A stretch of 64,000 nt of DNA, from contig SDZD01000021.1 of assembly GCA_004172935.1 (NCBI GenBank), positions 1 through 64,000 on the forward strand, in the 5' to 3' direction. The stretch comes from a bacterium. GTDB taxonomy: Bacteria > Armatimonadota > Abditibacteriia > Abditibacteriales > Abditibacteriaceae. Positions 36,730 to 54,147 of the stretch are shown here, piece after piece (position 1 is the stretch's first letter; every line of letters starts with the position of its first letter). Below the pieces are notes generated by a model, which was given only the letters and a program-made list of their open reading frames with translations, made no database searches and was not told the origin of the DNA. The position numbers were made by a program, and so were the translations under genes.

Positions 36730-36760
36730 AGGAAGATTGGCCCTTTTAAACTCAATCGCT

Positions 36761-37162
36761 ATGACTGATTTGCTTCAACTTGCGCGTGCCGCTCAAGCTA
36801 ATGCCCATGCGCCTTACTCCGGGTTTCGAGTCGGGGCTGCCATTCGTTTGCAGGGTGGAGAAACCTTCGCGGGGTGCAACGTCGAAAACGCCTCTTATGG
36901 CGCCACTATTTGCGCCGAGCGGGGGGCTATCATGAGTGCGGTTGCGGCGCTTGGCACTGTTTCTGTGGTTGAAGTGGTGGTGGTAAGCGAAGGTAATCCA
37001 CCGTGGCCTCCGTGTGGCATGTGTCGTCAGGTACTGTCTGAATTTTGCGTGCCCGATTGTCCAGTTCACGCAGTGAACGGCGAAGGTGTGCATTTGACGT
37101 GGCGCTTCGACCAATTGCTGCCATCGGGTTTCACGCCCGAATACTTGATCGAGTCACCGTGA
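36761..37162 (+). CDS. cdd: Cytidine deaminase
   Basis: Deaminates cytidine and deoxycytidine. 133 residues, short tetrameric type. Zn ligands and catalytic Glu are in ICAERGAIMSA and WPPCGMCRQVLSEF; APYSGFRVGAAI and CNVENASYG bind the nucleoside. The ATG at 36761 is chosen, because the longer in-frame reading overlaps tsaD. A nucleoside salvage unit with the phosphorylase downstream. Confidence 0.95.
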   Translation: MTDLLQLARAAQANAHAPYSGFRVGAAIRLQGGETFAGCNVENASYGATICAERGAIMSAVAALGTVSVVEVVVVSEGNPPWPPCGMCRQVLSEFCVPDCPVHAVNGEGVHLTWRFDQLLPSGFTPEYLIESP

Positions 37163-37202
37163 GCGGTGTACGGTTCGAGTATTGCCCTAAATATTTTTGC
37201 CG

Positions 37203-38468: not shown

Positions 38469-38948
38469 TGAGAATTGAATTCGAGTTATTAGTGGTTGGT
38501 TATTAGTGGTTAGTTTTGAGTTATGAACTCGAAGTTTTGAGCGTGGATTCATTGTTTTTTGAGGGGAATCGTACCAGATAGTTGGAAATTGATTATTTGG
38601 TACGCTCAATCATTTTTGATTGATTAAATGGCGTATTTGTGTAGGTTTAGATGTTTAAAATTAGACAAGATTGATTAATCAATCTTTATTCAATCTTTTG
38701 GGGGCTTATTGAGAAATTCACCACAGAGATACGGAGGGATTTTGAGAAGAGTTTTGGGGACTCGCGAAGGCGTGAAAGAGGGGAATAAGACGCAGAGGGG
38801 ACTTTTGAAGAGGAGTGGAAGTGCATGAGGGGAATGGGGAGAGACGATGGCCTCTTTTTCTTCAGTGAGACGAGTTAAAACTGTGGTGAGTTCATAATTT
38901 TTTTTGTGGGGAACTAGGTTTAATGAATTGAGGGGGGAGGTGGGTTGT
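38469..38948. other. 480-bp non-coding, AT-rich intergenic region
   Basis: No gene is visible. It contains degenerate runs (variants of TTAGTGGTTAGTTTTGAG near 38490-38520 and of CACCACAGAGATACGGAGG near 38719-38737), which look like decayed repeat sequence. It also holds three inverted repeats: CGTACCA (38570-38576) with TGGTACG (38598-38604), TCAATCA (38606-38612) with TGATTGA (38617-38623), and a 20-bp palindrome at 38667-38686. It separates convergent phosphorylase genes. Confidence 0.7.
38667..38686. promoter_or_regulatory. 20-bp perfect palindrome AAGATTGATTAATCAATCTT
   Basis: Perfect dyad in the phosphorylase/MTAP intergenic region. Its core TGATTAATCA recurs just upstream of the allC-like start at 48720-48729. 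It could be a regulator-binding site; it lies between the 3' ends of convergent genes, which argues for caution. Confidence 0.35.
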
Positions 38949-39785
38949 TTAGATGATTTCGTTAGTTGGGTCGTAGCCTTCTACTGCGAAGTCGCGGGTG
39001 GCGCGGCGGGTTAGTAGGGTTGGGTCGTCTTCGTAGCGACGAGCGGCTTCCAGAAAGAGTTTGCCGACGTTAGGAAGGGCTGGTTTCATGGCGGCGAGGA
39101 CTTCTTCATGGGAAAGTGGGGTTTCGGAGATTCCGGCTGCGGCATTGGTGATGATGGAGACCGAGGCGTAGGAGATTTCGGCTTCGCGGGCCAGAGTGCA
39201 TTCGGGGACGCCCGTCATGCCAACTACATCGGCGCCCCAGCGCGAGTAGGTGCGAATTTCTGCTGCTGTCTCGAAACGGGGGCCATCGGCGCACAGGTAG
39301 GTGCCGCCGTCCTGGAGGGTGAGGCCGATGTCGGACGCGACATCGAGTAGCAATTTGCGGAGGTGCCCGCAGTAGGGGTGAGTGACATCGGTGTGGACTG
39401 CACGGGTGTCGAAGAAGGTTTTGTTACGGTTGGTGGTTACGTCGAGGAATTGGTCGAGCAACACGAGTGTTCCTGGCGCCCATTCGGGGCGAAGTCCTCC
39501 GACGGCGGTTGAAGCCAGAATGCCCGTTACGCCCAACTTTTTGAGGGCCGCGATGTTGGCGCGGTAGTTGATTTTATGCGGGGGCACGGTTTTCTGGCTG
39601 GCGTCGTCGGGCTGGGCATGGCGGTGCAAAAAGACCACGTGTTTTTCGCCCAATGCGGCGCGTGTTACGTGAGCTGGGCCGAATTTCGTGTCGACTTGCT
39701 CGTCAACAGGGTTTTGAAATGGCGAGTCGGGGCCACGCAAATCGAAGCCGGTGCCGCCGATGAAGGCAATCAATGTATCGGACAT
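38949..39785 (-). CDS. MTAP/PNP-family purine nucleoside phosphorylase
   Basis: A 278-residue nucleoside phosphorylase of the MTAP/PNP-2 family: FIGGTGFDL, phosphate-binding HRHA, ASTAVGGLRP, CADGPRFETAAEI, GMTGVPECTLARE. Where MTAP proper has an Asp pair for adenine, the sequence reads SIITNAAAGISE, with Asn as in 6-oxopurine enzymes, so methylthioinosine, inosine or guanosine may be favoured over methylthioadenosine. ATG at MSDTLIAF chosen over a TTG two codons upstream. Its genomic context is nucleoside salvage. Confidence 0.88.
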   Translation of the reverse strand: MSDTLIAFIGGTGFDLRGPDSPFQNPVDEQVDTKFGPAHVTRAALGEKHVVFLHRHAQPDDASQKTVPPHKINYRANIAALKKLGVTGILASTAVGGLRPEWAPGTLVLLDQFLDVTTNRNKTFFDTRAVHTDVTHPYCGHLRKLLLDVASDIGLTLQDGGTYLCADGPRFETAAEIRTYSRWGADVVGMTGVPECTLAREAEISYASVSIITNAAAGISETPLSHEEVLAAMKPALPNVGKLFLEAARRYEDDPTLLTRRATRDFAVEGYDPTNEII

Positions 39786-40153
39786 AATCAATAATTCAGT
39801 TTCGCTTACTGCGCAGCGAGTCCCTGCGCGCGGTGCAACAATCTCTCCGAAGTACGATAGTAGGGTTAACGAGTGGGGATGGTGGGAAAAGAAGCTCTCA
39901 GTGTTTTTCTCAGTAGATAACTTCGATGATGAAAATGTTATGTGGGCGATAATTGACGTTTCTGAGAAAAGGAAGAGATTAAATATATTGTCTCGACATT
40001 AAGGAACTATTGCGGCAAAGTAAATTTTGCGGTGGCTATTCTAAAACACCCTCTGGGCCGTTGTGCGTGAGAAGGGGAGATGCTAATAAATAATGCGCTA
40101 CCTCAAATAAGCTCTACATCCCCATGTTTACAAGGTTTATTTAGAACTTCTTC
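39786..40153. promoter_or_regulatory. 368-bp region between divergent phosphorylase and nupC genes
   Basis: No gene is supported here; a short open frame that starts antisense to the phosphorylase gene has no coding character. The region must carry the promoters of both divergent genes, but I see no near-consensus promoter or strong hairpin. Confidence 0.5.
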
Positions 40154-41668
40154 ATGATTTCTTTGTTTCGTTCTGTTTTTCCCCGTCAGATTTTTCTGGG
40201 ATGTCTGCTGTTGTTGCTGGCCGTTGTTGTTCCTGCTTTTTCTCAGACAGCTCAACCGACGCCTTCGGCAACCAGCATTACTGCCACTGTGACGCCCGCC
40301 GCGACGCCCGCGACTGTGGAAGCCGCACCTGTTGTTGAGCGCGATCATAAAGGGACTCTGGCGCAAAAAGGTCAATCTTTATTGGGGTTGCTTACCCTGA
40401 CGGCGTTATGTTTTGGCATTGGACAATTGCGTCGTCCACGCCTTAAGCCGCTACTTCGTACTGTTGTTTGGGGTTTAGCCCTTCAGTTCGTGTTCGCGGT
40501 ATTGGTGCTTAATACTCCGGGATTTTTTGGGGCCATCAATAGTGCTGTGGATGGCTTACTGGGGTTCTCACGCGAAGGCGGGAAATTTTTATTCGGTAAC
40601 CTCGTCGATAATAATGTGCCCGTGGGGTTGCCTCTGGGCAGTAAGGCCATGGGGCCGATTCCTTCGCCGACGGCTTATGCAAACGTCGGAGCCTACTTCG
40701 CATTCAGTGTTCTTCCCACCATCATCTTCTTTTCAGCGCTTTCGACGCTGATGTACTTTTTGGGCATCTTGCAGCCCATTGTGCGCGGATTATCGTGGGT
40801 TATGCAGGGCACTATGGGGACTTCGGGGAGCGAGACATTGTCGGGTGTTGCCAACATCTTTCTTGGCCAGACAGAAGCTCCACTTTTTGTCCGCCCTTTC
40901 ATCGCAAAAGCGACTAAAAGCGAACTGATGGCGATTATGACGGGCGGATTTTCTAATATCGCTTCGGGAGTATTAGCTGCCTATGTTTCGATGCTGAGTG
41001 GGTTTGAACCTCAGATCGCTGGGCACCTGCTGTCGGCCTCCATCATTTCGGCTCCGGCTTCGTTGGTTGTCGCAAAGTTGCTTGTCCCTGAGTCGGAAGT
41101 TTCCGAGACGATGGGGAACACCCCTTTACATGTTGAAAAAGAAGACGCCAACGTTATCGACTCGGCGGCGCGCGGCGCCATCGAAGGTTTGCAGTTGGCC
41201 CTTAACGTGGGCGCGATGTTGCTCGTGTTCGTGGCACTCGTCGCTATGCTCAACGCGCTTTTGGGGTGGATAGGATTGAAGGCTGGTATGCCCGATTTGT
41301 CGTTGCAATTGTTGTTGGGATGGCTTCTTGCCCCGGTGGCGTGGCTAATTGGTGTGCCCTGGGAAGAATGTTCCAAAGTGGGGGCGCTGATTGGAGTCAA
41401 GACGGTCATCAACGAGTTCGTCGCCTATTTGCAACTGGCTACCGAAATGGGCAAGGATGGTAATTACCTCAATGCCCGTTCCTTCATCATCGCCGCATAT
41501 GCTTTGTGCGGCTTCGCGAACTTTTCTTCCATCGCGATTCAGATTGGTGGTATCGGTTCGATGGCTCCCGAACGACGCCATGACTTGTCGAAGTTGGGTA
41601 TGATCTCGATGATTGGCGGCGGCATCGCGTCGTGCATGACGGCGTGTGTCGTTGGAATTTTGCTTTGA
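40154..41668 (+). CDS. nupC: Concentrative nucleoside transporter NupC family
   Basis: Cation-coupled nucleoside uptake permease of the inner membrane. 504 residues, longer than the usual 400-430 because of the N-terminus: a signal-peptide-like segment (FLGCLLLLLAVVVPAFSQ) and a Thr/Ala/Pro-rich linker to about residue 60. The CNT core has QTEAPLFVRPFI, GTSGSETLSGVANIFLG, GFSNIASGVLAAY and KTVINEFVAYLQL. It fits with cdd, the phosphorylases, deoB and deoC as nucleoside use genes. Confidence 0.93.
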   Translation: MISLFRSVFPRQIFLGCLLLLLAVVVPAFSQTAQPTPSATSITATVTPAATPATVEAAPVVERDHKGTLAQKGQSLLGLLTLTALCFGIGQLRRPRLKPLLRTVVWGLALQFVFAVLVLNTPGFFGAINSAVDGLLGFSREGGKFLFGNLVDNNVPVGLPLGSKAMGPIPSPTAYANVGAYFAFSVLPTIIFFSALSTLMYFLGILQPIVRGLSWVMQGTMGTSGSETLSGVANIFLGQTEAPLFVRPFIAKATKSELMAIMTGGFSNIASGVLAAYVSMLSGFEPQIAGHLLSASIISAPASLVVAKLLVPESEVSETMGNTPLHVEKEDANVIDSAARGAIEGLQLALNVGAMLLVFVALVAMLNALLGWIGLKAGMPDLSLQLLLGWLLAPVAWLIGVPWEECSKVGALIGVKTVINEFVAYLQLATEMGKDGNYLNARSFIIAAYALCGFANFSSIAIQIGGIGSMAPERRHDLSKLGMISMIGGGIASCMTACVVGILL

Positions 41669-41785
41669 GGAAGCAGGTTTAGGGGGCAGCCACAGCCAAC
41701 ATAACTGGCCTGACGAAGTCGGGCATCCCCCCCTCATTGACCGGCGCCAGTTATTGCCGCGCATTAAATTAGAGAGGTTGGTAAC

Positions 41786-41816
41786 TGTAGGGGCGAACAC
41801 GAGGTTCGCCCCTACA
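41786..41816. repeat. 13-bp perfect palindromic repeat element, possible terminator
   Basis: TGTAGGGGCGAAC (41786-41798) and its complement (41804-41816) around ACGAG. The same type of sequence, a GTAGGGGCGA-like arm, occurs as a dispersed palindromic repeat in many unrelated bacterial genomes. It lies between the convergent nupC and HIU hydrolase genes and could fold as a terminator, although no T-tract follows. Confidence 0.65.
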
Positions 41817-41862
41817 GGGGGCTACGGCAACTCAAACGGGTAGGATGGCTGCGACCAGAAAG

Positions 41863-42198
41863 TTATGTGCCACGATATGTTGAGTAGCCAAAAGGGCTGA
41901 GTAGGAGGGGGACGTGGTAGTGGCGCTCGTCTTGGACTTTGAACACAACTTCTACTACTGGGTAGAACGTGCTGGTTTGAATTGATTCGAAATAGGCTTC
42001 GACTTCAAAGGTCAACTGGTAAATGCCCTTACCGAAGCCATCGGTGGGAGAGAGTAGGCGCGCGCGACCATCTTCATCGGTGGTGGATTGGGAGAGAGGG
42101 TGCCAGACATTATCGACTTGGAGTGCGACGCGGACGACAACGCCTGTCGCGGGGAGGCCGCGCGCTACGTCGAGAATGTGGGTTGTCAGGCCGTTCAT
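41863..42198 (-). CDS. 5-hydroxyisourate hydrolase (transthyretin-like)
   Basis: Hydrolyses 5-hydroxyisourate to OHCU after urate oxidation. The 111-residue protein has the defining ends: LTTHILDVARGLPA at the N-terminus and a C-terminal YRGT (most members end YRGS), plus the central HYHVPLLLSPFGYSTY. Last gene of the minus-strand purine operon, overlapping the OHCU decarboxylase gene by 4 nt. Confidence 0.95.
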   Translation of the reverse strand: MNGLTTHILDVARGLPATGVVVRVALQVDNVWHPLSQSTTDEDGRARLLSPTDGFGKGIYQLTFEVEAYFESIQTSTFYPVVEVVFKVQDERHYHVPLLLSPFGYSTYRGT

Positions 42199-42716
42199 AA
42201 TTCCAGTAGTTTGCCAAGGCGTAAGCGGGTAATTTGCTTCTGCTGTTCGGCGGCATTTTGGAGTTCGGTTTCCTTGTCGTTATTGAGGCGGGTTTGTAGG
42301 ACAGCCAACATCTCGTCGGCGCTTTTGCCTGTGGCGCAGATGATGAAGATGAAGCCGAACTTGTCCTCGTAGTCGGTGTTACCTTGTGCTAATGCCTGTA
42401 AGGTTGCTTCGGAGGCGGCATTTGTGCCTGCTTGTTCGTTGCCAGCCCAGGTGCTTGTTGTGGCGAATTTGGAGCGCAGCGAGTCGATGTCGCCAATTTT
42501 GGGGTGATGGGCGAAGGCTTCCAACCAGTCAGTGTGGTCGAGTTTGTTTAAGGCTTCTTCGCTGCGTGTGTAAAGCGTCTCTACATTGGCGAATGGGCGA
42601 CCGTTCATCACTATCAAGACCCACTTGGAAGCACCGCAGCAACGCAACAGCTCGTCCCATGCCGCACCTTCGGTGGCGGCATTCAGTTTTTGCAAGGCTG
42701 AATTATCAGTCATCAT
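42195..42716 (-). CDS. uraD: OHCU decarboxylase
   Basis: Decarboxylates 2-oxo-4-hydroxy-4-carboxy-5-ureidoimidazoline to S-allantoin. A 173-residue helical protein with the catalytic His in AFAHHPKIGD, then STWAGNEQAGTNAASE, YEDKFGFIFIICATGKSADEML and a C-terminal ITRLRLGKLLEL. It overlaps both neighbours by 4 nt. Placed between the HIU hydrolase and allantoinase genes, matching pathway order. Confidence 0.95.
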   Translation of the reverse strand: MMTDNSALQKLNAATEGAAWDELLRCCGASKWVLIVMNGRPFANVETLYTRSEEALNKLDHTDWLEAFAHHPKIGDIDSLRSKFATTSTWAGNEQAGTNAASEATLQALAQGNTDYEDKFGFIFIICATGKSADEMLAVLQTRLNNDKETELQNAAEQQKQITRLRLGKLLEL

Positions 42717-44071
42717 TTCCCTACTATTTGTCCTGTGGGTTGTGCGGCGAATTCGCCATCTTCGTAGACCTTCGTGCCGCGTAGAAATGTGGCGCGAGTG
42801 ACTCCTTTCAGTTCAACGCCATCGTAGGGGGTTACTTTATGGCGATGGTAATTGTTTTCGGTGCTTACGGTGAAACTGGTTTCTGGATGCCACACGACGA
42901 AATCGGCATCGTGCCCGACTGCAATTGCGCCTTTACGGGCTTGTAGGCCAAGCATGTTTGCCGGGGCGGTGCTTGTCCAACGGGCGATGTCTTGTAGCGA
43001 GAAGTCGCGTTGTTGGGCACCGCTCCACACGATGGGGAGCAGCCATTGGAGCGAGGCTATTCCACCCCATGCGCCCGCGAAGTTGCCGCTATCGAGGTTT
43101 TTCATGGCGGGTGGGCACGGCGAATGGTCGGAGGCGACGAAGTCAATGGTGCCATCGCGCAGTCCTTGCCACAGTCCTTCGCGGTTGGTGGCGTCGCGGA
43201 TTGGCGGGGCGCATTTTAATTGTGTCGCGCCATCGGGGATGGCTTCCGCTTCGAAGAATAGGTAGTGCGGCGAAGTTTCGACGGTGAGGGGCAAGCCCTC
43301 ATTGCGGGCCGCTTTTAGTTCGGGGAGTGCTTGAGCTGTTGCCAGATGGACGATGTGAACCGGGCACTTGAACTCTCGGCAAAGTTCGATCATCAAGCGA
43401 ATGGCGCGCAGTTCCCACTGTGGCGGACGCGAGGCCAAATAGTCGGCGTAGTTTCGCGATGGGGCGGCGGGAGGCGTTATGCCAGCTTCGTCTTCGATTT
43501 CGGCGTGAACTAGTAGTGGGACGCCGCGCCGCGCCAGAATGGGCATTGCGGCGCGTAACTCGATCTCGCCCGCAGCGGGGAATTCATCTAAGCCGGAATG
43601 GACTAGAAAGGCTTTGATACCCAATGCGCCCGCGTCGAGCATTGGCTCGATTTCATTGAGGTTGCCTGGGATTAGGCCGCCATAGAATCCACAATCGACG
43701 CGCAGTTTGCCCTGTGTTGCCGCGACTTTTTGGTGCCATGCGGCGAGGGTTGTCACGACGGGCGAAGCGTTGAGGGGCATTTCGGCCAACATGGTTAGCC
43801 CGCCCGCTGCTGCTGCGCGAGTGGCTGTTTCGAAGCCTTCCCAGTCGGCGCGTCCCGGCTCGTTGATGTGGACGTGGGCGTCGATGACGCCGGGCGAAAT
43901 GACAGCGTCGCCGAAATCTTCCAACACACCGTCTGGCGGGGTTTCTTCATAGGCGGTGACGCGCTCGATTCGCCCGTTAGTGAGCCAGAGCGTTGCGGGT
44001 TGCACTGTTTCGGGAGTCACGACGCGCTGTGAGCGGATGGCGCGTGGGGTGTCAGAAGTCCTCGGTGTCAT
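42713..44071 (-). CDS. allB: Allantoinase
   Basis: Opens the hydantoin ring of allantoin to give allantoate. The 452-residue amidohydrolase has metal ligands in DAHVHINEPGR, the carboxylated Lys in GIKAFLVHSG, His in LLVHAEIED and VHIVHLATA, and Asp in VASDHSPCP. Its start lies inside the flavoprotein gene (20-nt overlap) and its stop overlaps uraD, so it is tightly coupled. Confidence 0.96.
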   Translation of the reverse strand: MTPRTSDTPRAIRSQRVVTPETVQPATLWLTNGRIERVTAYEETPPDGVLEDFGDAVISPGVIDAHVHINEPGRADWEGFETATRAAAAGGLTMLAEMPLNASPVVTTLAAWHQKVAATQGKLRVDCGFYGGLIPGNLNEIEPMLDAGALGIKAFLVHSGLDEFPAAGEIELRAAMPILARRGVPLLVHAEIEDEAGITPPAAPSRNYADYLASRPPQWELRAIRLMIELCREFKCPVHIVHLATAQALPELKAARNEGLPLTVETSPHYLFFEAEAIPDGATQLKCAPPIRDATNREGLWQGLRDGTIDFVASDHSPCPPAMKNLDSGNFAGAWGGIASLQWLLPIVWSGAQQRDFSLQDIARWTSTAPANMLGLQARKGAIAVGHDADFVVWHPETSFTVSTENNYHRHKVTPYDGVELKGVTRATFLRGTKVYEDGEFAAQPTGQIVGK

Positions 44072-45458
44072 AGGCTTTCAAACTGTCGAAGAAAAGGTCT
44101 TTATCTCCCAGATAAAGCTGTTTGGTCACGCCCGCGACGACGCGCGGCAGCGAATATTTCATGCCCGAAATGCTGGCGCCGCCAAAGCCCATACTCGGCA
44201 AACAGCCGAAGGTGTAGTTGAAGATGGCGCTTAAATAGGGAGCCTCTCCCGCTGTTTTCTCGGTGAATTCGAAGTTGGCACCAAGGTAGGGGTGGCGTGA
44301 TAAATCGGCGTTGCGTTCGCTTTCTGGTGGTGTGTAGCGGTCACGCCATAGGGCGATATGGGGCAATAGATTTGGCAGTTCGGGGCGAACGCCCAGATCG
44401 GTTTGGAATCCGGTTCCGACGATGAGGAAGTCGCTTTCGAATTTGCCGAGCGGGGTTTGGAGATGGACTGTATCGCCGACGTTACTTAGCTGAGTTAATG
44501 GGCTGTTGGCGTGGAGCGCGAAGTTATCGAAGCGGATGGCGCGTTTGTAGGTGCTGGCAGGGGGGAGTTGCCCCATGCGGATTAGTTGCAGAATGAACTT
44601 CCACTTGTCGGCATCGGGCAAGTCGGCGTGATGCTTCAGGAAGCCGGTGAATTCTCCCCAGCGATAGGGATTGACTCGCACCAGTTCGTTGCGCCTGAAG
44701 AAGAGATTGACTTCTTTGGCGCCGTGTTCGAGTGCGACTGCCGCGTTATCGAAGGCACAGGCTCCGGCGCCCAGTACAGCGACTCGCTTGCCCGCGAGAT
44801 CGGGGAATCCTATTTCGGTGTGGGTGTGGGCATACAAATGCGAGGGCAACGCCTCGCTTATCTGGGGGGGCGTGTGCCATGCGCCGGAACCTTCGATGCC
44901 TGTTGCCAGGACAATGGTGCGCGCCCAGACGATGCGGATGCCGTTTGGCCCCGAAAGCGGGATGGAGAAGCAATTTTCCAATTCGCTCCATTGGATGGCT
45001 GCGGCGCGGGTGTCGTTTTCGACTGGTAAGCCCAGGGTTTTGCGGAGCCAGAAAAGGTAGTCGGCCCACATCTCTTTCGGGAATTGATTGAGGTTTTCCC
45101 ATGCGCCTTCGCCGTGTTGCGCTTCGTACCATGCACGAATGGTGAGGGAGGGGATGCCGCCGTCTGGCCCCGTCAGGTATTTTGGGGTGCGTAGCGTAAT
45201 CATGCGTCCAAAGGTGCGCCACGGGCCTTCAGAGCCTTCGGGATTGGCATCAACGACGAGAATGTTTTTCACTCTCTCGCGTAGCAGCGCCCCAGCCACA
45301 GCCAAGCCGCCTTGCCCGCCGCCGATGATGAGGCAGTCGAGGATATTTTCTCCGGTCGAGGTCTGGCGGGGCGGCACCCAGTCGCGGCGTGGGTAATCGA
45401 GAAATTCGAGATCGCGGTGAACTCGCGCCTCGTGTTTTTCTAATGCGTGAGAATCCAT
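44052..45458 (-). CDS. Class-B-like FAD/NAD(P)-binding oxidoreductase; candidate urate hydroxylase
   Basis: A 468-residue flavoprotein: first Rossmann motif LIIGGGQGGLAVAGALL (FAD), ATG motif IVLATGIEGSG, a second Rossmann motif VAVLGAGACAFDNAAVA (NAD(P)H), and FLIVGTGFQTD near the end. This layout resembles flavin monooxygenases, not HpxO-type urate hydroxylases. It sits in a seven-gene coupled operon for urate-to-glyoxylate conversion that lacks a uricase, so it is a good candidate for that oxidation. It overlaps allB by 20 nt and follows the amidohydrolase after 2 nt. The substrate is an inference. Confidence 0.85.
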   Translation of the reverse strand: MDSHALEKHEARVHRDLEFLDYPRRDWVPPRQTSTGENILDCLIIGGGQGGLAVAGALLRERVKNILVVDANPEGSEGPWRTFGRMITLRTPKYLTGPDGGIPSLTIRAWYEAQHGEGAWENLNQFPKEMWADYLFWLRKTLGLPVENDTRAAAIQWSELENCFSIPLSGPNGIRIVWARTIVLATGIEGSGAWHTPPQISEALPSHLYAHTHTEIGFPDLAGKRVAVLGAGACAFDNAAVALEHGAKEVNLFFRRNELVRVNPYRWGEFTGFLKHHADLPDADKWKFILQLIRMGQLPPASTYKRAIRFDNFALHANSPLTQLSNVGDTVHLQTPLGKFESDFLIVGTGFQTDLGVRPELPNLLPHIALWRDRYTPPESERNADLSRHPYLGANFEFTEKTAGEAPYLSAIFNYTFGCLPSMGFGGASISGMKYSLPRVVAGVTKQLYLGDKDLFFDSLKAYDTEDF

Positions 45459-45460
45459 GA

Positions 45461-46699
45461 TTAGGACGCCAATTCTGCCAGCGAAAGCGCTAACACCTCC
45501 ACTCCGCGTTGGATTTCTTCGGGCGATGAATATTCATCGGGGCGGTGGCTTATGCCAGCTTTGGAGGGGATGAATATCATTCCTGTTGGGCAGAGTCTCG
45601 CCATGAAGAGGGCATCATGATAGGCGCGCGACACCATGTTATGGAACGGTAAGTCCAGCGCCGCCGCCGCTTTTTGGCTGGCCTGGATGATGGAGGGGGC
45701 GCAGGTTGCGGGCGGGTCGGCGTTGAGCGTTTCGAGCGTCCCCGACACATTGCGCCTTGCCGCGATTTCGGCCCATGCGTCGCGGATTTGGGAGACGACG
45801 GCATCGCGGCGCTCCAGTTCGATGTCGCGCACATCAATTTCGATTTGGGTGCGGCTGGGGATTGAGTTGACGGCTCCAGGATGGATTTGGAAGAAGCCAG
45901 TTGTCGCAACGGTGTCGATGGCGCCTGTCGAAAGGGCGGCGTTTTCGACGGCTAACGCGAGTTCGGAACCCGCCAGTAGTGCATCGCGGCGCCCCGGCAT
46001 CAGGCGCGCTCCGGCGTGACCTCCTTCGCCTTCGATGGTGAGTTTTACGGTGGCGGGGGCGGCGATAGCGCTGACTATGCCCAGCGGCAAACCTGCTGCT
46101 TCCAGCAACGGGCCTTGCTCGATGTGAAGTTCGACGAATGCGTGATAGCAGCCTTCAGGAAGTCGAACTGATTCTAGTTCGCCTGTGTAGCCGCCTTCGT
46201 GGCGCGCAGTTTCGAAGTCGATGCCATCGCCGTCTTTCAGTGAGCGGAGTTTTTCGGGCGAAAGCACGCCCGACATGGTGCGACTGCCCAAGCAGCCGAG
46301 GCCGAAGCGAGTCGGCTCTTCGGAGGTGAACATGATGAGTTCGAGTGAGCGGCGCGGTGTGAAGCCCGCGCTTTTGAGGGCACGTAGCGCTTCGAGTCCG
46401 CCTAAAACCCCAACGCAGCCATCGAAGCGCCCCGAATGGGGGATGGCGTCGGTGTGGGAGCCTGTGGCGACAGCTGTGAGTTCCGGTTCGCTGCCCTCGA
46501 AGCGCGCGAAGATGTTGCCCAGTGCGTCTTCGCGTACGTCTAACTCGGCTTCGGCGCACAGTGATTTGAAGTAGGCGCGCGCTTGCAAATCGCGCGCTGT
46601 CCACAGTACCCTTGTCACGGCGGGGGCGGGCGCATCGGAGAAGGTTGCCAATTCCTCCAATTCGGCGTTCAGGCGTTGCTGATTGACGGGAATGTTCAA
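45461..46699 (-). CDS. M20 amidohydrolase, probable ureidoglycolate amidohydrolase
   Basis: A 412-residue metal-dependent amidase of the allantoate/N-carbamoyl amidohydrolase family: HTDAIPHSGRFDG (ligands His, Asp), TSEEPTRFG (Glu), VELHIEQGP (His) and AGISHRPDEYSS (His). The TTG start overlaps the stop of the aminohydrolase gene (TTGA); a much longer in-frame reading upstream runs antisense or out of phase over that gene. Since a separate AllC-like gene is present, this paralogue best fits the last step, ureidoglycolate to glyoxylate, ammonia and CO2. Confidence 0.85.
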   Translation of the reverse strand: MNIPVNQQRLNAELEELATFSDAPAPAVTRVLWTARDLQARAYFKSLCAEAELDVREDALGNIFARFEGSEPELTAVATGSHTDAIPHSGRFDGCVGVLGGLEALRALKSAGFTPRRSLELIMFTSEEPTRFGLGCLGSRTMSGVLSPEKLRSLKDGDGIDFETARHEGGYTGELESVRLPEGCYHAFVELHIEQGPLLEAAGLPLGIVSAIAAPATVKLTIEGEGGHAGARLMPGRRDALLAGSELALAVENAALSTGAIDTVATTGFFQIHPGAVNSIPSRTQIEIDVRDIELERRDAVVSQIRDAWAEIAARRNVSGTLETLNADPPATCAPSIIQASQKAAAALDLPFHNMVSRAYHDALFMARLCPTGMIFIPSKAGISHRPDEYSSPEEIQRGVEVLALSLAELAS

Positions 46700-47451
46700 A
46701 GGGCCTCCATTGCATCGCGGTTGACGTCTTTGTAGTAGATGTAGCGCGAGGGGACTTTTCCTGTGGCCGCGAACCATTGCGGGCAGTAGGGCGCCATCCA
46801 GATGCAATCCCCCGCCGCGACTGGATACCACGACTCGTTTAATCGGTAGATGCCTTCTCCGTCCAGCATCAGCAGACCATGTTCCATGATGTGGGTTTCG
46901 ACGAAGGGAAGAGTCGCGCCGGGTTGGTAGGAGAATACGTTGACGGCCATATCGAAGTCGGGGGTTTCGGGGAGCAGCACTTGTAGCACGGCATCGGGGT
47001 CGCCCATGAATGGTTTGCCCTCGATATTTTCGGCGTGTCCGATGAACAATTCGGGAGATTGGGTGTTGGCGTTGGGCGTGTAGCGCTTCTCGAAAAGTAC
47101 CAACCGCGATGAAGTCTTCACCTGGAGTTCGAGCCGTTCTCCGGCGGGTAAGAAAAGGTAACTTCCGTGGCTTAGAGCCTCTTTCCCCACTTCCAGTTCG
47201 CCTTCTAGCACGTAGAAACATGCTTCGATACCCTCTGAGGGCTGGAAGGTTGTGGTTTCGAGACTGGGTTCGAGCGACACGAGGGTTTGCGCCAGTCGCG
47301 CGCCAATGGCGGGCGAAATTAGCACTACGCCACTGGCGCTATCCCAGTTGGGCAGGGCGGTGACGACGTGACCATCGGGGGCGATGAGGGCATGGTCGCG
47401 CGTTAGTACAGTTCGAGATTGTCCGATGCGGCTAAAGAGTTGGGGATTCAA
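46696..47451 (-). CDS. allE: (S)-ureidoglycine aminohydrolase
   Basis: A bicupin of 251 residues that releases ammonia from ureidoglycine and yields S-ureidoglycolate. The C-terminal cupin carries Mn ligands in ETHIMEHGLLMLDGEGIYRL and the family segment GDCIWMAPYCPQWF, then YIYYKDVNRD. It lies between the two M20 amidohydrolases, overlapping the AllC-like gene by 20 nt and the second by 4 nt, which mirrors the reaction order. Confidence 0.94.
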   Translation of the reverse strand: MNPQLFSRIGQSRTVLTRDHALIAPDGHVVTALPNWDSASGVVLISPAIGARLAQTLVSLEPSLETTTFQPSEGIEACFYVLEGELEVGKEALSHGSYLFLPAGERLELQVKTSSRLVLFEKRYTPNANTQSPELFIGHAENIEGKPFMGDPDAVLQVLLPETPDFDMAVNVFSYQPGATLPFVETHIMEHGLLMLDGEGIYRLNESWYPVAAGDCIWMAPYCPQWFAATGKVPSRYIYYKDVNRDAMEAL

Positions 47452-48715
47452 AGTGTTCTCCTGTTTCGCGCGCTATTGAGAGCAAAAATGAGTGCATCGC
47501 TTCGAGGGCGAGGGCGACATCATCAACGAGTACGGCTTCTTCAGGGCAGTGACTTGCACCACCGGGAGTGCGTAAAAATAGCATGGCGCAAGGGCATAGA
47601 GTCGCCATAACCGCCGCATCGTGGCCCGCGCCGCTGACCATTTCAGGGGCGTGAACACCCGTTTTATCGCACGCGCGTTGAAGCAGGGAGCGCAAACGCG
47701 AGTCCATTGGAACCGCGTTTTGGTTGGAGCGGGCGAGAACTTCGAAACCGATGCCTCGCTGCGCTGCAATGCGACTCGCCATAGCAAGCAAGCCATCGAC
47801 GGCGGTTTCGCGCACGGCATCGTTGGCGTGCCGAACATCAAGGCTGCAAATCGTTTCGCCAGGAACGACGTTAGATGTGTTGGGGCCGACATTGATGGTG
47901 CCAACTGTCGCCATCAAACCATCGGTTACATTGCCAAAACTTTCGACGGCCAGTATCCATTCGCTGGTTGCGACCAGAGCATCGCGGCGCCACTGCATCG
48001 GGAGGGTTCCGGCGTGCCCAGATTGACCCATGAAGCGAAGTTGGAGACGGCTTTGACCGACGATGTCGGTCACAATACCCAGCGGGGCGTCGAGCGCTTC
48101 GAGAAGTGGCCCTTGTTCGATATGGGCTTCCAGATAGCCAATGATACCAGCGCTGTCGTAGCGCGCGTTTTGCCATGCTTCGGGGGGTAAACCAAATTGG
48201 TGCAGGGCTTGGCTCATCGAAATTCCGTTTGAGTCGAGTAGGCCTAAAAGATATGAATCGAAAGTGCCCGCGATGGCGCGGCTACCTAAATAGGGGGTCT
48301 TGTAGCGCACACCTTCCTCTTCGGAAAAACCGATGACTTCGACGGCGAAAGGGAGATGTTGGCCTTGCAACAATGAGACAACTTCGATGGCTAGGAGGAC
48401 ACCCAGCATCCCATCGTATTTTCCGGCGTTGGGGACTGTGTCGAGGTGAGAGCCGAAGAGCAACTTCGGGGCAGTGGGGCTTTTTTCACGGGCGCCGTAA
48501 TGCCCGATGAGGTTGCCCAATTCATCGACCCTTGGCGTCATGGTGGCCTCGCTCATCCAGTTGGCAACCATTTCGTTGGCCTGAGCCATCGCGGGGGAAA
48601 GGAAGGTGCGCGTCAGGTTTGCTGGCGATTCGCTGCACTTCGCCAACTGGTCGCAGCGAGCGAGGACTCGCGCAGCGCTTTGGCTCCAAATCGGGTGATT
48701 GCTTAAAACATCCAT
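47432..48715 (-). CDS. allC: Allantoate amidohydrolase
   Basis: Hydrolyses allantoate to ureidoglycine, ammonia and CO2. About 427 residues, M20 family: GSHLDTVPNAGKYDG, SEEEGVRYKTPYLGS, LEAHIEQGPLLE, GGASHCPEE. The ATG at MDVLSNHPIW is chosen over a TTG five codons earlier; neither has a clear ribosome binding site. It is first of the seven-gene minus-strand operon and divergent from guanine deaminase. Assignment as the allantoate enzyme, with the other paralogue as ureidoglycolate enzyme, is by order and could be reversed. Confidence 0.85.
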   Translation of the reverse strand: MDVLSNHPIWSQSAARVLARCDQLAKCSESPANLTRTFLSPAMAQANEMVANWMSEATMTPRVDELGNLIGHYGAREKSPTAPKLLFGSHLDTVPNAGKYDGMLGVLLAIEVVSLLQGQHLPFAVEVIGFSEEEGVRYKTPYLGSRAIAGTFDSYLLGLLDSNGISMSQALHQFGLPPEAWQNARYDSAGIIGYLEAHIEQGPLLEALDAPLGIVTDIVGQSRLQLRFMGQSGHAGTLPMQWRRDALVATSEWILAVESFGNVTDGLMATVGTINVGPNTSNVVPGETICSLDVRHANDAVRETAVDGLLAMASRIAAQRGIGFEVLARSNQNAVPMDSRLRSLLQRACDKTGVHAPEMVSGAGHDAAVMATLCPCAMLFLRTPGGASHCPEEAVLVDDVALALEAMHSFLLSIARETGEHFESPTL

Positions 48716-48864
48716 CGTATGATTAATCAACTATCGAATCTTATCTGCTACTCTCGATTTCTGATGTGACATGAGCATTTGACGGATGAGAAAGCGCCCG
48801 TTATGCTTTTGCCAACTGCTTCGTCGAGCATTGGATGCCACGAAGGTCAAGGAAAATTTCGCTT
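48716..48864. promoter_or_regulatory. Divergent promoter region of the purine catabolic locus
   Basis: The 149 bp between allC (minus) and guaD (plus) must carry both promoters. It contains the palindrome TGATTAATCA at 48720-48729, just in front of the allC start, whose core also occurs at 38672-38681. No near-consensus promoter is evident. Confidence 0.5.
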
Positions 48865-49377
48865 ATGAACACTCAATCCACTTCCGACACCGACGCTCCG
48901 CAAGGGACTCCCGAAGCGTGGATGCGAGCGGCCATCGAAGCGGCTCGTAACAGCGTTTCGCTGGGGGCGGGCGGCCCTTTTGGCGCTTGTATTGTGCGCG
49001 ATGGTCAGATTCTGTCGGTATCCAGTAACCATGTACTGCTCAACCATGACCCCACCGCTCACGCCGAGGTTATGGCTATCCGCAAAGCGTGCGCCGCGCT
49101 TGAGTATCATTTGCTCGAAGGCGCCGAAATTTACACCACCACAGAACCTTGCCCAATGTGTTTCGCTTCGCTGCATTGGGCGCGCGTTGCCAAAATTTAC
49201 TATGGTACCAATATCGCCGACGTTGCCGCTCTGGGCTTTAACGAGATGACGTTGTCGAATTTTCAAATGCGTGAACTTGGACAAAGCCCGGTTGAGATTA
49301 TTCCCGATTTCATGCGTGATGAATGTCTTGAATTGCTCGACTTTTGGAGCAACCTCGAAAGTCGCCGTACCTATTAA
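48865..49377 (+). CDS. guaD: Guanine deaminase (CDA-fold)
   Basis: Zn-dependent deaminase, 170 residues from the ATG at MNTQSTSDTD, preceded by AAGGAAA. Zn and catalytic Glu are in AHAEVMAIRKAC, and the two Cys in TTEPCPMCFASLHWA. This form resembles Bacillus GuaD (guanine to xanthine). It is next to xanthine dehydrogenase genes and divergent from the urate branch, which supports guanine over other deaminase substrates. Confidence 0.85.
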   Translation: MNTQSTSDTDAPQGTPEAWMRAAIEAARNSVSLGAGGPFGACIVRDGQILSVSSNHVLLNHDPTAHAEVMAIRKACAALEYHLLEGAEIYTTTEPCPMCFASLHWARVAKIYYGTNIADVAALGFNEMTLSNFQMRELGQSPVEIIPDFMRDECLELLDFWSNLESRRTY

Positions 49378-49502
49378 ATTGTACGGGGCGTCGTATTAAG
49401 ATGAGGGCTGAATTAAGCCCCGAAACGCTGTTTGTCTCAAGAATTTACGCCACTGTGATTTCACCGAAATGCTGTGGTTTTTTTGAGCGTTGTTTGAGGG
49501 GG

Positions 49503-49565
49503 ATGGCTCTTTAATACTGCTTCTTTCCCTTTGGCAACATGATGTAGTTGCTGTGTGGGAGCCAT
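49503..49565 (+). other. Predicted leader RNA structure before xdhA
   Basis: ATGGCTC (49503-49509) pairs with GAGCCAT (49559-49565), enclosing a small GCAAC/GTTGC hairpin, 10 nt before the xdhA start. No known riboswitch pattern can be confirmed. Confidence 0.3.
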
Positions 49566-49575
49566 TGTTGGATTG

Positions 49576-51024
49576 ATGCGCGACCATATTTTCTTCTTTC
49601 TCAACGGGCAAAAGATACAGGCGACAGGACGCGCCGTATTCGGCATGTTGGCGCCGTTTTTACGGCGTGAACGCGGCCTGACGGGAACTAAAATCGCCTG
49701 TGCGCATGGCGCCTGTGGCTCGTGTTCGGTGCTGCTTGGGCGTTCGTCGCAAAGTGGCTTCAATTATCAACCCATTAACTCTTGTATCTTGCCGCTTTTT
49801 GCCTGTGATGGTGCCCACATTATTACGGTTGAGGGGCTAAACGGCCCGGATAGCGTTGGAGGGCAAGATGATGGTGTGTTATCGCCTATTCAAAGCGCGA
49901 TGGTGGAGTGTCATGGGGCGCAGTGCGGATTTTGCACGCCTGGAATTGTTGTTACTCTCACTGCTTTTCACGAAAACCGCTCCGGTTTTACCAAAGAAGA
50001 ATTGACATCGGCGCTCGAAGGCAACCTGTGCCGTTGTACTGGTTATTCGCCGATCATTGAAGCGGGATTGAGTGTCGAAAGCGTTAAGTTGCTCCCCCTT
50101 TCGCAGCACTATCCCAGCGATCCTCTGAGCGTCGCTTTGGGCGCCGGGACGAGTGAAGCCGTCGAAATCGGTGTGCCGGAAGATGAGTTGGAAGGTGAAC
50201 AGCATCTCTTTATAGGGCGTAAAGGCGAGGAAGTGCTACGTTGGAAAGCGGCTCATCCCGAAGCCATTGTGGTTGCGGGCGGAACTGAGGTTGGCGTCGC
50301 GATGAGCGTTAAGGGATTGGCGCCGCGCGAAATCTTGAGCCTTGCTCATTTGAATGGCTGGGATGAAGTGGTTGTTGAAGGGGGCGAATTGGTTCTTGGC
50401 GCCCTCGCTACGTGGGCGCAAGTGGCCGAAAAAGCGGGTGATTTTGTGCCAGAGTTCGGCGCTTTTTTGGCGCGGTGGGGTTCGCCGCAACTCCGCAACG
50501 CCGGGACTGTGGCAGGGAATATCATTCGTGCCGCTCCAATCTCCGATTCGTTGCCATTTTTATTGGCGTGCGAGGCTGAACTTGAATTTCTTTCTGAATC
50601 GTTGGGGGCGCGGCGCGTGAAAGTCGCTGATTTTCTCGATTCAAGCCCGCGTTTACTTCCCGATGAATTGTTGCGTCGCGTGTTTGTGCCGTTACCCACA
50701 GAGGAGCAGCAGTTGCGGCTTTTTAAGGTTTCCAAACGCCGGGCTTTTGACCGCTCAATTGTTAGCGCGGCTTTCCTACTTACAGTCCGCGAGGGCCACA
50801 TCAAGGAGATCAATATCGCATTCGGGGGTGTGGCTCCGCTTGCGCTGCGTTTGCCCAACACCGAGGCTTTCTTAAAGGGCAAGGCGCTAGAGGCCGCGAC
50901 GTGGCGTGAAGCTGGCAGCGTTGCCCAAAGCGAAATTTCTCCTTATTCCGATGCGGCGGCGAGTGGCGAGTATCGCGCGCGGTTGGTTGCCAATCTGCTA
51001 CGAAAATTCGGCGCTGAACAGTGA
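49576..51024 (+). CDS. xdhA: Xanthine dehydrogenase small subunit (2Fe-2S and FAD domains)
   Basis: Electron-transfer subunit, 482 residues. The N-terminal half binds two [2Fe-2S] clusters: GTKIACAHGACGSCSV with a later C, and AQCGFCTPG...NLCRCTGY. The C-terminal half is the FAD domain (VVAGGTEVGVAMS, NAGTVAGNIIRAAPISD). The ATG at MRDHIFFFLNG is chosen over an upstream TTG. Followed by xdhB after 18 nt. Confidence 0.95.
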   Translation: MRDHIFFFLNGQKIQATGRAVFGMLAPFLRRERGLTGTKIACAHGACGSCSVLLGRSSQSGFNYQPINSCILPLFACDGAHIITVEGLNGPDSVGGQDDGVLSPIQSAMVECHGAQCGFCTPGIVVTLTAFHENRSGFTKEELTSALEGNLCRCTGYSPIIEAGLSVESVKLLPLSQHYPSDPLSVALGAGTSEAVEIGVPEDELEGEQHLFIGRKGEEVLRWKAAHPEAIVVAGGTEVGVAMSVKGLAPREILSLAHLNGWDEVVVEGGELVLGALATWAQVAEKAGDFVPEFGAFLARWGSPQLRNAGTVAGNIIRAAPISDSLPFLLACEAELEFLSESLGARRVKVADFLDSSPRLLPDELLRRVFVPLPTEEQQLRLFKVSKRRAFDRSIVSAAFLLTVREGHIKEINIAFGGVAPLALRLPNTEAFLKGKALEAATWREAGSVAQSEISPYSDAAASGEYRARLVANLLRKFGAEQ

Positions 51025-51042
51025 GCGTCGGTGTGAAAAATT

Positions 51043-53331
51043 ATGCCATCTGTTGGTCGTTCCATTCCCCATGAGTCGAGTCGCGATCATGTGCGCGGTC
51101 GCTCCATCTTTTTGGATGACATACCGCCCCATCGCAATGAACTGCTGGTCGATTTTGTCAGTAGTCCGGTTGCGCGCGGCGAAATCGTGGCGCTCGACCT
51201 CAGTGCCGCTGCCAAACTGCCTGGCGTCGTTGGCCTGTACACCTTCCGTGATGTGCCCGGTGACAACCTGTTCGGCCCCATTTTCAACGACGAGCATTTT
51301 TTGGCCGAAGACAAGGTGTGTTTTCAAGGCGAACCGATTGTTGTTATTGCTGCCGAATCGCACGCGGCTTTGAAAGCGGCTAAGGTGGCTATTCGCCTTG
51401 AGGTGCGGGCCGAAACTCCCGTCGTTTCTATCGAACAGGCTATTGAGGCGGGAGAATTCATTGGAACGCCGCGTGCCATCACGCGGGGAGATGCCGCTGA
51501 TGCTGTGGGCAAAGCCCTGCACCGACTAGAGGGCACCATTTACATCGGGGGGCAGGAGCATTTTTATATGGAAACGCAGTGTGCCCTCGCTATTCCCGGC
51601 GAAAACGGGCATCTGACTTTCCACTCTTCGACGCAGAACCCTACCGAGACGCAGGTGATGGCAGCGCGGGTTTTAGGTTTGGGAATGCATCAGGTGGTTT
51701 GCCTGTGCAAGCGCATGGGAGGGGGCTTTGGCGGCAAAGAAACACAGGCTACGCCGCCTGCGCTTATGGCTGGATTGGTGGCGCTTAAAACCGGACGCCC
51801 CGCGCGCTGCATTTACGCCCGTGAGGCCGATGGCCGTGTCACGGGAAAGCGCCATCCTTTCGAGGTGCGTTATCAAGTTGGCTTCGATGACGATGGGCAT
51901 CTGCTGGGGGCGCGGCTCGAATTTTATTCCAATGCAGGCTCCTCAGCGGATTTATCGACTTCCGTTTTCGACCGCGCTCTGTATCACGCCGATAATGCCT
52001 ATTTCATTCCCGACATCGAATTGATTGGCCGTGTCTGTCGCACTAATCTTCCTTCGAATACTGCGTTTCGTGGCTTCGGGGGCGGTCAGGGGATTATGGC
52101 TATTGAGAGTGTCATCGAGGACATTGCTGAGTTTCTTGGGAAAGATGCTGCCGAGATTCGCCTTATCAACTGTTATGGCGCCGATGGGCGCAACCAGACA
52201 CCTTATGGGCAAATCGTGCAGGACGACACATTGCCGCTGCTTTTTGAGCGACTTGTGGAGCGGGCTAACTACTGGGAGCGGCGCCGGGCCATCGACGAAT
52301 TTAATGCCACAAGTCAAAGCCATTTGCGCGGGTTATCGCTCACGACGGTTAAATTCGGTATCTCCTTCACTACCAAGTTTTTGAATCAAGCGAACGCGCT
52401 GGTTAACGTGTACACCGATGGTACCATTCAGGTTTCGACAGGGGGAACTGAAATGGGGCAGGGATTAAACACCAAAATCCGCCAGCTTGTCGCTGATGAG
52501 TTTGCCGTTGACCCGGCAAATATCAGCGTGATGTCGACCTCGACCGAGAAAAACAACAATACCCCGCCTACTGCTGCCTCGGCTGGAACCGATTTGAATG
52601 GTAGCGCTGCCGTCAATGCCTGCCGCCTCATTCGCGAACGCTTGACCGAGTTTGCGGCTTCTCGGCTTAGCGAAGGGGAGCCGATCCCGATAGAGCGCGT
52701 GGTGTGGGAGAATGGCTGTGTTTTCGACAGCGACAAGCCGGAGCAAAGCATTGAGTTCGGCAAACTCGTCCATGCCGCCCATCGCGAACGTATTAGTCTT
52801 GGTGAGCGTGGGCATTACATCACGCCGGGGCTTGGGCCGAGTCGCCCGTTCTTTTATTACACCACGGGATGTGCGCTGGCCGAAGTTGAGATTGATCGGT
52901 TCACTGGTGAGATGCGGGTGACGCGCGCCGACGTTTTAATGGATATTGGACAGTCCATTAATCCCGCTATCGACCTGGGGCAAATTGGCGGTGGTTTCGT
53001 GCAGGGTATGGGATGGGCGACTTGCGAAGAACTCAAGTTTTCTGATGAGGGCGAGTTGCTAACGGCCTCACCCTCAACGTACAAAATCCCCGGTGTTCGC
53101 GATATTCCCGAAGATTTTCGCATCGAGTTCGTGGAAGACAGCCGCTTTCCAGAAAATGTGCGTTCTAGCAAAGCTGTTGGCGAACCGCCGTTGTTACTTG
53201 GGCTTTGTGTCTGGACAGCTATTAAAAACGCGCTTTCGTATGCGGGAAGCAAAGGGCAGAGCGCTCCCCTGAACCTGCCCGCAACGGGAGAAGAAATTTT
53301 GCGCTGCTTAAGCGAAATGGAGGAGGTGTGA
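51043..53331 (+). CDS. xdhB: Xanthine dehydrogenase molybdopterin-binding subunit
   Basis: Catalytic subunit, 762 residues, oxidising hypoxanthine or xanthine to urate. Features: GQEHFYMETQCALA, GGGFGGKETQ, the substrate Arg in NTAFRGFGGGQG, TEMGQGLNTKIRQL and the catalytic Glu in AVGEPPLLLG near the C-terminus. It overlaps xdhC by 4 nt. Confidence 0.96.
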   Translation: MPSVGRSIPHESSRDHVRGRSIFLDDIPPHRNELLVDFVSSPVARGEIVALDLSAAAKLPGVVGLYTFRDVPGDNLFGPIFNDEHFLAEDKVCFQGEPIVVIAAESHAALKAAKVAIRLEVRAETPVVSIEQAIEAGEFIGTPRAITRGDAADAVGKALHRLEGTIYIGGQEHFYMETQCALAIPGENGHLTFHSSTQNPTETQVMAARVLGLGMHQVVCLCKRMGGGFGGKETQATPPALMAGLVALKTGRPARCIYAREADGRVTGKRHPFEVRYQVGFDDDGHLLGARLEFYSNAGSSADLSTSVFDRALYHADNAYFIPDIELIGRVCRTNLPSNTAFRGFGGGQGIMAIESVIEDIAEFLGKDAAEIRLINCYGADGRNQTPYGQIVQDDTLPLLFERLVERANYWERRRAIDEFNATSQSHLRGLSLTTVKFGISFTTKFLNQANALVNVYTDGTIQVSTGGTEMGQGLNTKIRQLVADEFAVDPANISVMSTSTEKNNNTPPTAASAGTDLNGSAAVNACRLIRERLTEFAASRLSEGEPIPIERVVWENGCVFDSDKPEQSIEFGKLVHAAHRERISLGERGHYITPGLGPSRPFFYYTTGCALAEVEIDRFTGEMRVTRADVLMDIGQSINPAIDLGQIGGGFVQGMGWATCEELKFSDEGELLTASPSTYKIPGVRDIPEDFRIEFVEDSRFPENVRSSKAVGEPPLLLGLCVWTAIKNALSYAGSKGQSAPLNLPATGEEILRCLSEMEEV

Positions 53332-54098
53332 TGCAACCATTTTGGCCGACATTCGCGGGACTTCAGAGTAGTGGCGCGCCGTTTTGCGTGGTTACGTTGG
53401 TTGACTCGGTGGGCAGTGCCCCTGCTGATCGGGGGGCGAAGATGCTGGTGACTCGCGCGGGGCTACTGACTGGCACCGTTGGCGGAGGGAAGGTCGAGGC
53501 GCGCGCCCTGCTTGAAGCGCAGACGATGCTCGATACCTCGATAACTGAGCCGAAGTTCGAGCAGTGGAACTTGCAGACTGATCTCGGCATGACATGTGGC
53601 GGCGTGGTACGTTTATTTTTCGAGCCTTTCAATATCGCGCGTTGGCCCATCGCTGTTTTCGGGGCTGGGCACGTGGCGCAAGCTCTAATCCCAGTTTTAT
53701 TGCCCCTCGATTGTGGGCTGACCTGCCTCGATACGCGGCCCGAATGGTTGGAACGTTTGCCAGATGAACCAAAACTGCGTCGTGTTCAATCCGACGATTT
53801 GGCGGCAGAAGTTGACCATTTGCCGACTAATACCTTCATCGTGTTGATGACAATGGGGCACTCCACCGATTTGCCGATTCTGCGCAAGGTGTTGGCTCGT
53901 CCCTTTCCTTATGTTGGCGTCATAGGTTCTAAAGCGAAAGCGGGCGCGTTGCGTCACACACTGCTCAAAGAAGGTTTCGCACCCGAAGAGTGTGCGCGTT
54001 TTTTCTGTCCGATTGGTCTTCCCCTCGGTACTAATCATACCCACGAAATTGCTATCAGCATCGCTGCTCAGATGATTCAACACCGTGACCGTGTGTAA
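53328..54098 (+). CDS. xdhC: XdhC, molybdenum cofactor sulfuration/insertion chaperone
   Basis: A 256-residue chaperone that binds Moco and helps mature xanthine dehydrogenase. N-terminal LVDSVGSAPADRGAKMLVT and GTVGGGKVEA, then a Rossmann domain with AVFGAGHVAQALIPVL, TMGHSTD and YVGVIGSKAK. It overlaps xdhB by 4 nt and is followed by a terminator. Confidence 0.94.
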   Translation: MMQPFWPTFAGLQSSGAPFCVVTLVDSVGSAPADRGAKMLVTRAGLLTGTVGGGKVEARALLEAQTMLDTSITEPKFEQWNLQTDLGMTCGGVVRLFFEPFNIARWPIAVFGAGHVAQALIPVLLPLDCGLTCLDTRPEWLERLPDEPKLRRVQSDDLAAEVDHLPTNTFIVLMTMGHSTDLPILRKVLARPFPYVGVIGSKAKAGALRHTLLKEGFAPEECARFFCPIGLPLGTNHTHEIAISIAAQMIQHRDRV

Positions 54099-54108
54099 TT
54101 AGGTAGAA

Positions 54109-54145
54109 AAAAGGCTGCTCACAAAGTTTTTGTGCGCAGCCTTTT
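54109..54145. terminator. Bidirectional terminator after xdhC
   Basis: AAAAGGCTGC (54109-54118) pairs with GCAGCCTTTT (54136-54145); the inner part continues with CACAAA/TTTGTG and one mismatch. It separates xdhC from the convergent dehydrogenase gene. Confidence 0.85.
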
Positions 54146-54147
54146 GG

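What the first reader, a model, noticed from the sequence alone, without database searches (positions are those of the whole stretch)
44052..45458. Candidate non-homologous urate hydroxylase inside the purine operon
The locus has every step from guanine to glyoxylate except urate oxidation. No UOX, PuuD or HpxO-like gene is present. The only unassigned gene is a flavoprotein with two Rossmann motifs, coupled (2-nt gap and 20-nt overlap) between the amidohydrolase and allantoinase genes. It would be a new uricase class.
Basis: inference. Interest (0 to 1): 0.85.

Follow-up and report, generated by a model that had tools for sequence, protein, structure and literature searches.

The report
Known-type bacterial urate hydroxylase (HpyO)
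The unassigned flavoprotein gene in this bacterium's purine-breakdown operon almost certainly encodes the uric-acid-oxidising enzyme, but it belongs to HpyO, a class already described from Xanthomonas in 2012, so it is a new member of a known kind rather than a new uricase class.

Summary
An intact 468-codon gene (44052-45458, minus strand) lies 2 nt after an amidohydrolase gene and overlaps the allantoinase gene by 20 nt. The operon encodes every other step from urate onward. The held genome (91.8% complete) has no Uox, no PuuD and no true HpxO.

The functional guess is well supported, but "a new uricase class" is not. The protein is full-length homologous (43-45% identity) to a flavoprotein present in 50 Xanthomonadaceae genomes, 42 of them typed here as Xanthomonas. 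In all 16 of those loci read, it lies immediately before uraH, mostly right after uraD. Xanthomonas is where HpyO was characterised in 2012 as an FAD- and NAD(P)H-dependent urate hydroxylase not homologous to HpxO. The model has the SidA/PvdA fold. R266, E269 and Q297 occur in 59 of 60 uraD/uraH-linked homologues and are lost in several unlinked branches.

Within the family, the window protein sits in a separate, strongly supported, mostly myxobacterial clade sharing the order hpyO-allB-uraD-uraH. No protein of that clade is known to me to have been assayed. None of 60 phylum relatives has the gene or uraD, suggesting horizontal transfer.

Verdict: HpyO-family urate hydroxylase, new member of a known kind. 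Urate activity was not tested.

The parts
44052..45458 (-). hpyO-family flavin-dependent urate hydroxylase (468 aa)
41863..42198 (-). uraH, 5-hydroxyisourate hydrolase (111 aa)
   Evidence: PF00576 131 bits, single copy in genome
42195..42716 (-). uraD, OHCU decarboxylase (173 aa)
   Evidence: TIGR03180 183 bits, over cut-off
42713..44071 (-). allB, allantoinase (452 aa), overlaps hpyO by 20 nt
   Evidence: TIGR03178 552 bits, over cut-off
45461..46699 (-). AllC-type amidohydrolase, probable ureidoglycolate amidohydrolase; start read as TTG overlapping the allE stop (my reading)
   Evidence: NF006771/TIGR01879 over cut-off from residue ~179 of the longer mechanical ORF; start context
46696..47451 (-). 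allE, (S)-ureidoglycine aminohydrolase (251 aa)
   Evidence: TIGR03214 292 bits, over cut-off
47432..48730 (-). allC, allantoate amidohydrolase (432 aa)
   Evidence: NF006775 541 bits, over cut-off
48835..49377 (+). guaD-like CDA-fold deaminase (probable guanine deaminase)
   Evidence: PF00383 84.5 bits; substrate inferred from context
49555..51024 (+). xdhA, xanthine dehydrogenase small subunit
   Evidence: best model TIGR02963, 378 bits (cut-off 467)
51043..53331 (+). xdhB, xanthine dehydrogenase molybdopterin subunit
   Evidence: TIGR02965 889 bits, over cut-off
53328..54098 (+). xdhC, xanthine dehydrogenase accessory protein
   Evidence: TIGR02964 175.8 bits, over cut-off

Best explanation
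The gene encodes an HpyO-family urate hydroxylase: a soluble class B type flavin monooxygenase that uses FAD, NAD(P)H and O2 to hydroxylate urate at C5, giving 5-hydroxyisourate and water (no H2O2). UraD and UraH, encoded two and three genes downstream, then convert this to allantoin for AllB, AllC, AllE and the second amidohydrolase. Shown here: intact gene, coupling, homology, fold, conserved context, absence of other uricases in the held genome. Inferred: the urate substrate (by homology to Xanthomonas HpyO and context), NAD(P)H use, and the idea that R266, E269 and Q297 bind urate.
For: 44% identity over 464 aa to the Xanthomonas protein. Homologues in 50/397 Xanthomonadaceae genomes, 42 of them typed as Xanthomonas by a phosphoglucomutase 89-100% identical to the X. 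citri structure 5bmn (the organism of 5bmn is from my own knowledge). In all 16 loci read, the gene lies immediately before uraH; uraD was detected immediately upstream in 11. HpyO of Xanthomonas is an FAD- and NAD(P)H-dependent urate oxidase (PMC4562309). Most close homologues (56-60% identity) have allB downstream, seven of them the whole allB-uraD-uraH block, and L044 repeats the window's seven-gene order. Independent uraD-hpyO-uraH linkage in Alphaproteobacteria, and in Bacillota including a Priestia plasmid. No Uox, PuuD or HpxO in the own genome. No Uox in 18 of 18 searched genomes with uraD/uraH-linked homologues. R266/E269/Q297 in 59/60 linked against 34/51 unlinked homologues. Confident model (pLDDT 93.6) with SidA/PvdA/KtzI fold, TM 0.68/0.76, E ~1e-18.
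Against: No member of the window's own clade is known to me to have been assayed. In the tree the window clade and the Xanthomonas clade are each strongly supported but separated by branches holding unlinked paralogues, so strict orthology is not shown; one common branch for all signature-bearing proteins is not rejected either (p-AU 0.128). Two members of the window clade (L043, L045) are not next to purine genes, and the L043 genome has a Uox. The assembly is 91.8% complete. The HpyO paper itself was not readable here; the identity of the Xanthomonas gene rests on its being the uraD/uraH-linked flavoprotein.
Confidence: 0.92

Rival explanations
1. It is a genuinely new uricase class, unrelated to any described urate-oxidising enzyme.
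For: No Uox, PuuD or HpxO in the genome; no NCBIfam model names it; separate clade from the Xanthomonas proteins.
Against: Full-length 44% identity and shared residue signature with the Xanthomonas uraD/uraH-linked flavoprotein, the HpyO of the literature.
Confidence: 0.03
2. It is a paralogous flavin monooxygenase acting on another compound (for example a purine degradation side product), and the real uricase lies in the unassembled ~8% of the genome.
For: Many homologues sit away from purine genes and lack the R266/E269/Q297 signature; L043 in the window clade coexists with a Uox; assembly 91.8% complete.
Against: The window protein carries the signature; the gene is coupled between amidohydrolase and allantoinase genes and the arrangement is conserved in other phyla, none of the searched ones with a Uox.
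Confidence: 0.05

Closest known systems
HpyO urate hydroxylase (Xanthomonas; Michiel et al. 2012)
   Same: Full-length homology (43-45%), two Rossmann motifs, class B flavin monooxygenase type, R266/E269/Q297 signature, location in a purine operon with uraD and uraH
   Different: Separate strongly supported clade; order hpyO-allB-uraD-uraH rather than uraD-hpyO-uraH; different host phylum; activity not measured
HpxO urate hydroxylase (Klebsiella, Acinetobacter)
   Same: Same expected reaction and cofactors (FAD, NAD(P)H)
   Different: Different flavoprotein family: HpxO is a class A hydroxylase with one Rossmann domain (own knowledge); P0001 has no match to the HpxO model NF033623
SidA/PvdA/KtzI N-hydroxylating flavin monooxygenases
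   Same: Closest solved fold (TM 0.68/0.76), FAD and NADPH domains
   Different: About 14% identity; those act on ornithine, lysine or diamines, not urate
Uox and PuuD urate oxidases
   Same: Same pathway step
   Different: Uox is a cofactor-free T-fold enzyme, PuuD a membrane cytochrome c protein; neither is in the genome

Membership tests
HpyO urate hydroxylase | Full-length sequence homology to the Xanthomonas uraD/uraH-linked flavoprotein | tested here: met
   44% over 464 aa, 375 bits; 50 Xanthomonadaceae genomes
HpyO urate hydroxylase | Gene linked to uraD and uraH | tested here: met
   Window 41863-45458; conserved in homologues
HpyO urate hydroxylase | FAD- and NAD(P)H-binding two-Rossmann fold | tested here: met
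   Motifs, Pfam, AlphaFold/Foldseek (binding itself not measured)
HpyO urate hydroxylase | Falls inside the clade of Xanthomonas HpyO | tested here: inconclusive
   Separate 12-row clade; common branch of signature-bearing proteins not rejected, p-AU 0.128
HpyO urate hydroxylase | Identity of the Xanthomonas gene used here with the published HpyO accession | not testable with these tools
   The 2012 paper is not in the library; PMC4562309 gives no accession in the passages searched
HpyO urate hydroxylase | Urate-dependent NAD(P)H oxidation | not testable with these tools
   Needs purified enzyme
HpxO (NF033623) | Match to the curated model | tested here: not met
   No match among NCBIfam hits of P0001; best elsewhere in genome 98.8 bits, cut-off 500
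Uox (PF01014) | Match to uricase model | tested here: not met
   No match in genome
PuuD (PF06181) | Match to Urate_ox_N model | tested here: not met
   No match in genome

The most novel reading that the evidence does not exclude
The window clade (mostly myxobacterial, plus this phylum) is a distinct HpyO subfamily that was recruited to purine operons independently of the Xanthomonas HpyO clade from a pool of non-urate monooxygenases, possibly with different kinetics or coupling.
Probability: 0.15. Interest if true: 0.35.

Novelty: new member of a known kind. Interest (0 to 1): 0.22.

Why it matters
It fills a pathway gap in this genome with a known but under-annotated enzyme class. Neither family library searched here (Pfam, NCBIfam) names HpyO, and public records call its members only 'NAD(P)/FAD-dependent oxidoreductase' or hypothetical. 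The R266/E269/Q297 signature plus uraD/uraH linkage could help annotators separate probable urate hydroxylases from look-alike monooxygenases. A peroxide-free bacterial uricase family of this breadth (Pseudomonadota, Myxococcota, Bacillota and this phylum) is also of applied interest, since PMC4562309 notes that H2O2 from Uox is a concern in therapy.

Tried and rejected
The search for related loci with the single sequence found nothing; an alignment of uraD/uraH-linked homologues was needed. A phage search gave no match. Papers holding 'HpyO' gave no accession or sequence. Model coordinates are not readable, so the distance of R266/E269/Q297 from the flavin was not measured. I considered that the protein could be an electron-transfer partner of XDH (glutamate-synthase-like NAD(P) motif hits); I rejected this because those hits cover little more than the second Rossmann motif and homologues link to uraD/uraH often without XDH.

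Full report
Observation. The ORF at 44052-45458 on the minus strand is intact and encodes 468 residues. It starts 2 nt after the end of an AllC-type amidohydrolase gene (45461) and its last 20 nt overlap the start of the allantoinase gene (44071), exactly as stated. Family models identify the neighbours: allantoate amidohydrolase, (S)-ureidoglycine aminohydrolase, a second hydantoinase/carbamoylase-type amidohydrolase, allantoinase and OHCU decarboxylase on the minus strand, and XdhA, XdhB and XdhC on the plus strand. A 5-hydroxyisourate hydrolase gene lies at the end of the minus-strand operon, 41863-42198, and is the only copy in the genome. A CDA-fold deaminase at 48835-49377 is probably the guanine deaminase (inference). 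Every step after urate is therefore encoded, and only urate oxidation lacks a named enzyme.

Other uricases. In the window's own assembly (7.2 Mb, 91.8% complete) there is no Uox and no PuuD. The HpxO model finds only generic class A monooxygenases, best 98.8 bits against a curated cut-off of 500. The control searches for Uox and PuuD rang in well-known genomes, so the models work.

Known class. The literature has a fourth bacterial solution, HpyO of Xanthomonas, described as an isofunctional non-homologous counterpart of HpxO that uses FAD and NAD(P)H (Michiel et al. 2012, as summarised in PMC4562309). From memory of that paper's abstract, the X. campestris gene restored urate use in an Acinetobacter baylyi strain whose hpxO it replaced; I could not read the paper here. 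To test the link by sequence, I searched Xanthomonadaceae. Of 397 genomes, 50 hold a homologue, mostly full-length at 43-45% identity. I read 16 loci, 12 of them Xanthomonas. In all 16 uraH follows the homologue immediately; uraD was detected immediately upstream in 11, while in the other five the window's UraD query did not detect it. The window protein aligns to one of them over 464 residues at 44% identity, 375 bits. The uraD/uraH-linked flavoprotein of Xanthomonas is therefore a homologue of the window protein, and by far the best candidate for HpyO.

Context elsewhere. A genome-collection scan gave 80 named loci. Together with plasmid loci, 42 of 91 have uraH or uraD within the fetched stretch, although many stretches are short. 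The closest homologues (56-60%) come mainly from Myxococcota and related bins. Seven of these carry hpyO-allB-uraD-uraH in the window's order (in L080 with a gap before allB), two more have allB and then run into the contig end, and L044 repeats the full allC-allE-allC-hpyO-allB-uraD-uraH order. Alphaproteobacteria and Bacillota carry uraD-hpyO-uraH or close variants, including a Priestia plasmid with a nucleobase transporter. Of 30 genomes with homologues, only one has a Uox over the cut-off, and it is one whose homologue (L043) is not near purine genes; none of the 18 with uraD/uraH-linked homologues has one.

Tree and signature. In a 78-row tree the window sits in a 12-row clade (SH-aLRT 100) with these homologues. 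The Xanthomonas proteins sit in a separate 25-row clade (100) that is almost wholly uraD/uraH-linked, and Acetobacteraceae form a third linked group. Branches of unlinked paralogues lie between, with mixed support. Three residues, R266, E269 and Q297, are present in 59 of 60 linked homologues, including the window and Xanthomonas, and in 34 of 51 others. They were picked post hoc and the rows are related, so the Fisher value (4e-6) overstates the strength. Holding all signature-bearing rows on one side of a branch is not rejected (p-AU 0.128). A single origin of urate-specific members is thus possible, and so is more than one.

Fold and mechanism. AlphaFold gives a confident model (pLDDT 93.6). 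Its closest solved structures are the N-hydroxylating flavin monooxygenases DfoA, KtzI, PvdA and SidA (TM 0.68/0.76, E about 1e-18, ~14% identity). This supports a class B type cycle: NAD(P)H reduces FAD, O2 forms a C4a-(hydro)peroxyflavin, and urate is hydroxylated at C5 to 5-hydroxyisourate, with water as the other product. The substrate and cycle are inferred from HpyO and the fold. The role of R266/E269/Q297 in urate binding is a hypothesis.

Origin. None of 60 relatives sampled from the genus up to the phylum has a strong homologue or uraD. With the myxobacterial gene order and sequence affinity, this suggests the operon was acquired by horizontal transfer; its base composition is close to the surroundings (0.563 against 0.54-0.55), so the transfer is not recent or came from a donor of similar composition. 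The tools give the phylum no name.

Verdict. It is a new member, in a clade of its own, of the HpyO kind. Urate activity was not and could not be tested here.

Noticed in passing
L043 7001-8401 and L045 7001-8398: Members of the window's clade with the R/E/Q signature but beside hydrolase, sugar and transport genes instead of purine genes; the L043 genome also has a canonical uricase, so these may have another role.
   Followed up: partly
L038 (record titled Comamonas sp. KCTC 72670): A 9.0 Mb genome whose homologue nests among Myxococcota next to Pyxidicoccus, with the myxobacterial gene order; the record title may be wrong, or the operon was transferred.
   Followed up: no
L030, L033, L035, L036, L096, L098, L109, L125: Homologues lacking R266/E269/Q297, some beside LysR regulators, ABC transporters or peroxidase-like genes (L033, L036): a probable non-urate monooxygenase group of unknown substrate.
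   Followed up: partly
L032 5746-9428: A Priestia filamentosa plasmid carries a compact urate module: nucleobase transporter, uraD, uraH and hpyO.
   Followed up: no
window 36608-56466: The purine operon lies among nucleoside genes (cytidine-deaminase-like, thymidine-phosphorylase-like, purine nucleoside phosphorylase-like, NupC-like transporter, phosphopentomutase-like), judged by eye from the translations: a larger nucleoside salvage/degradation cluster.
   Followed up: no
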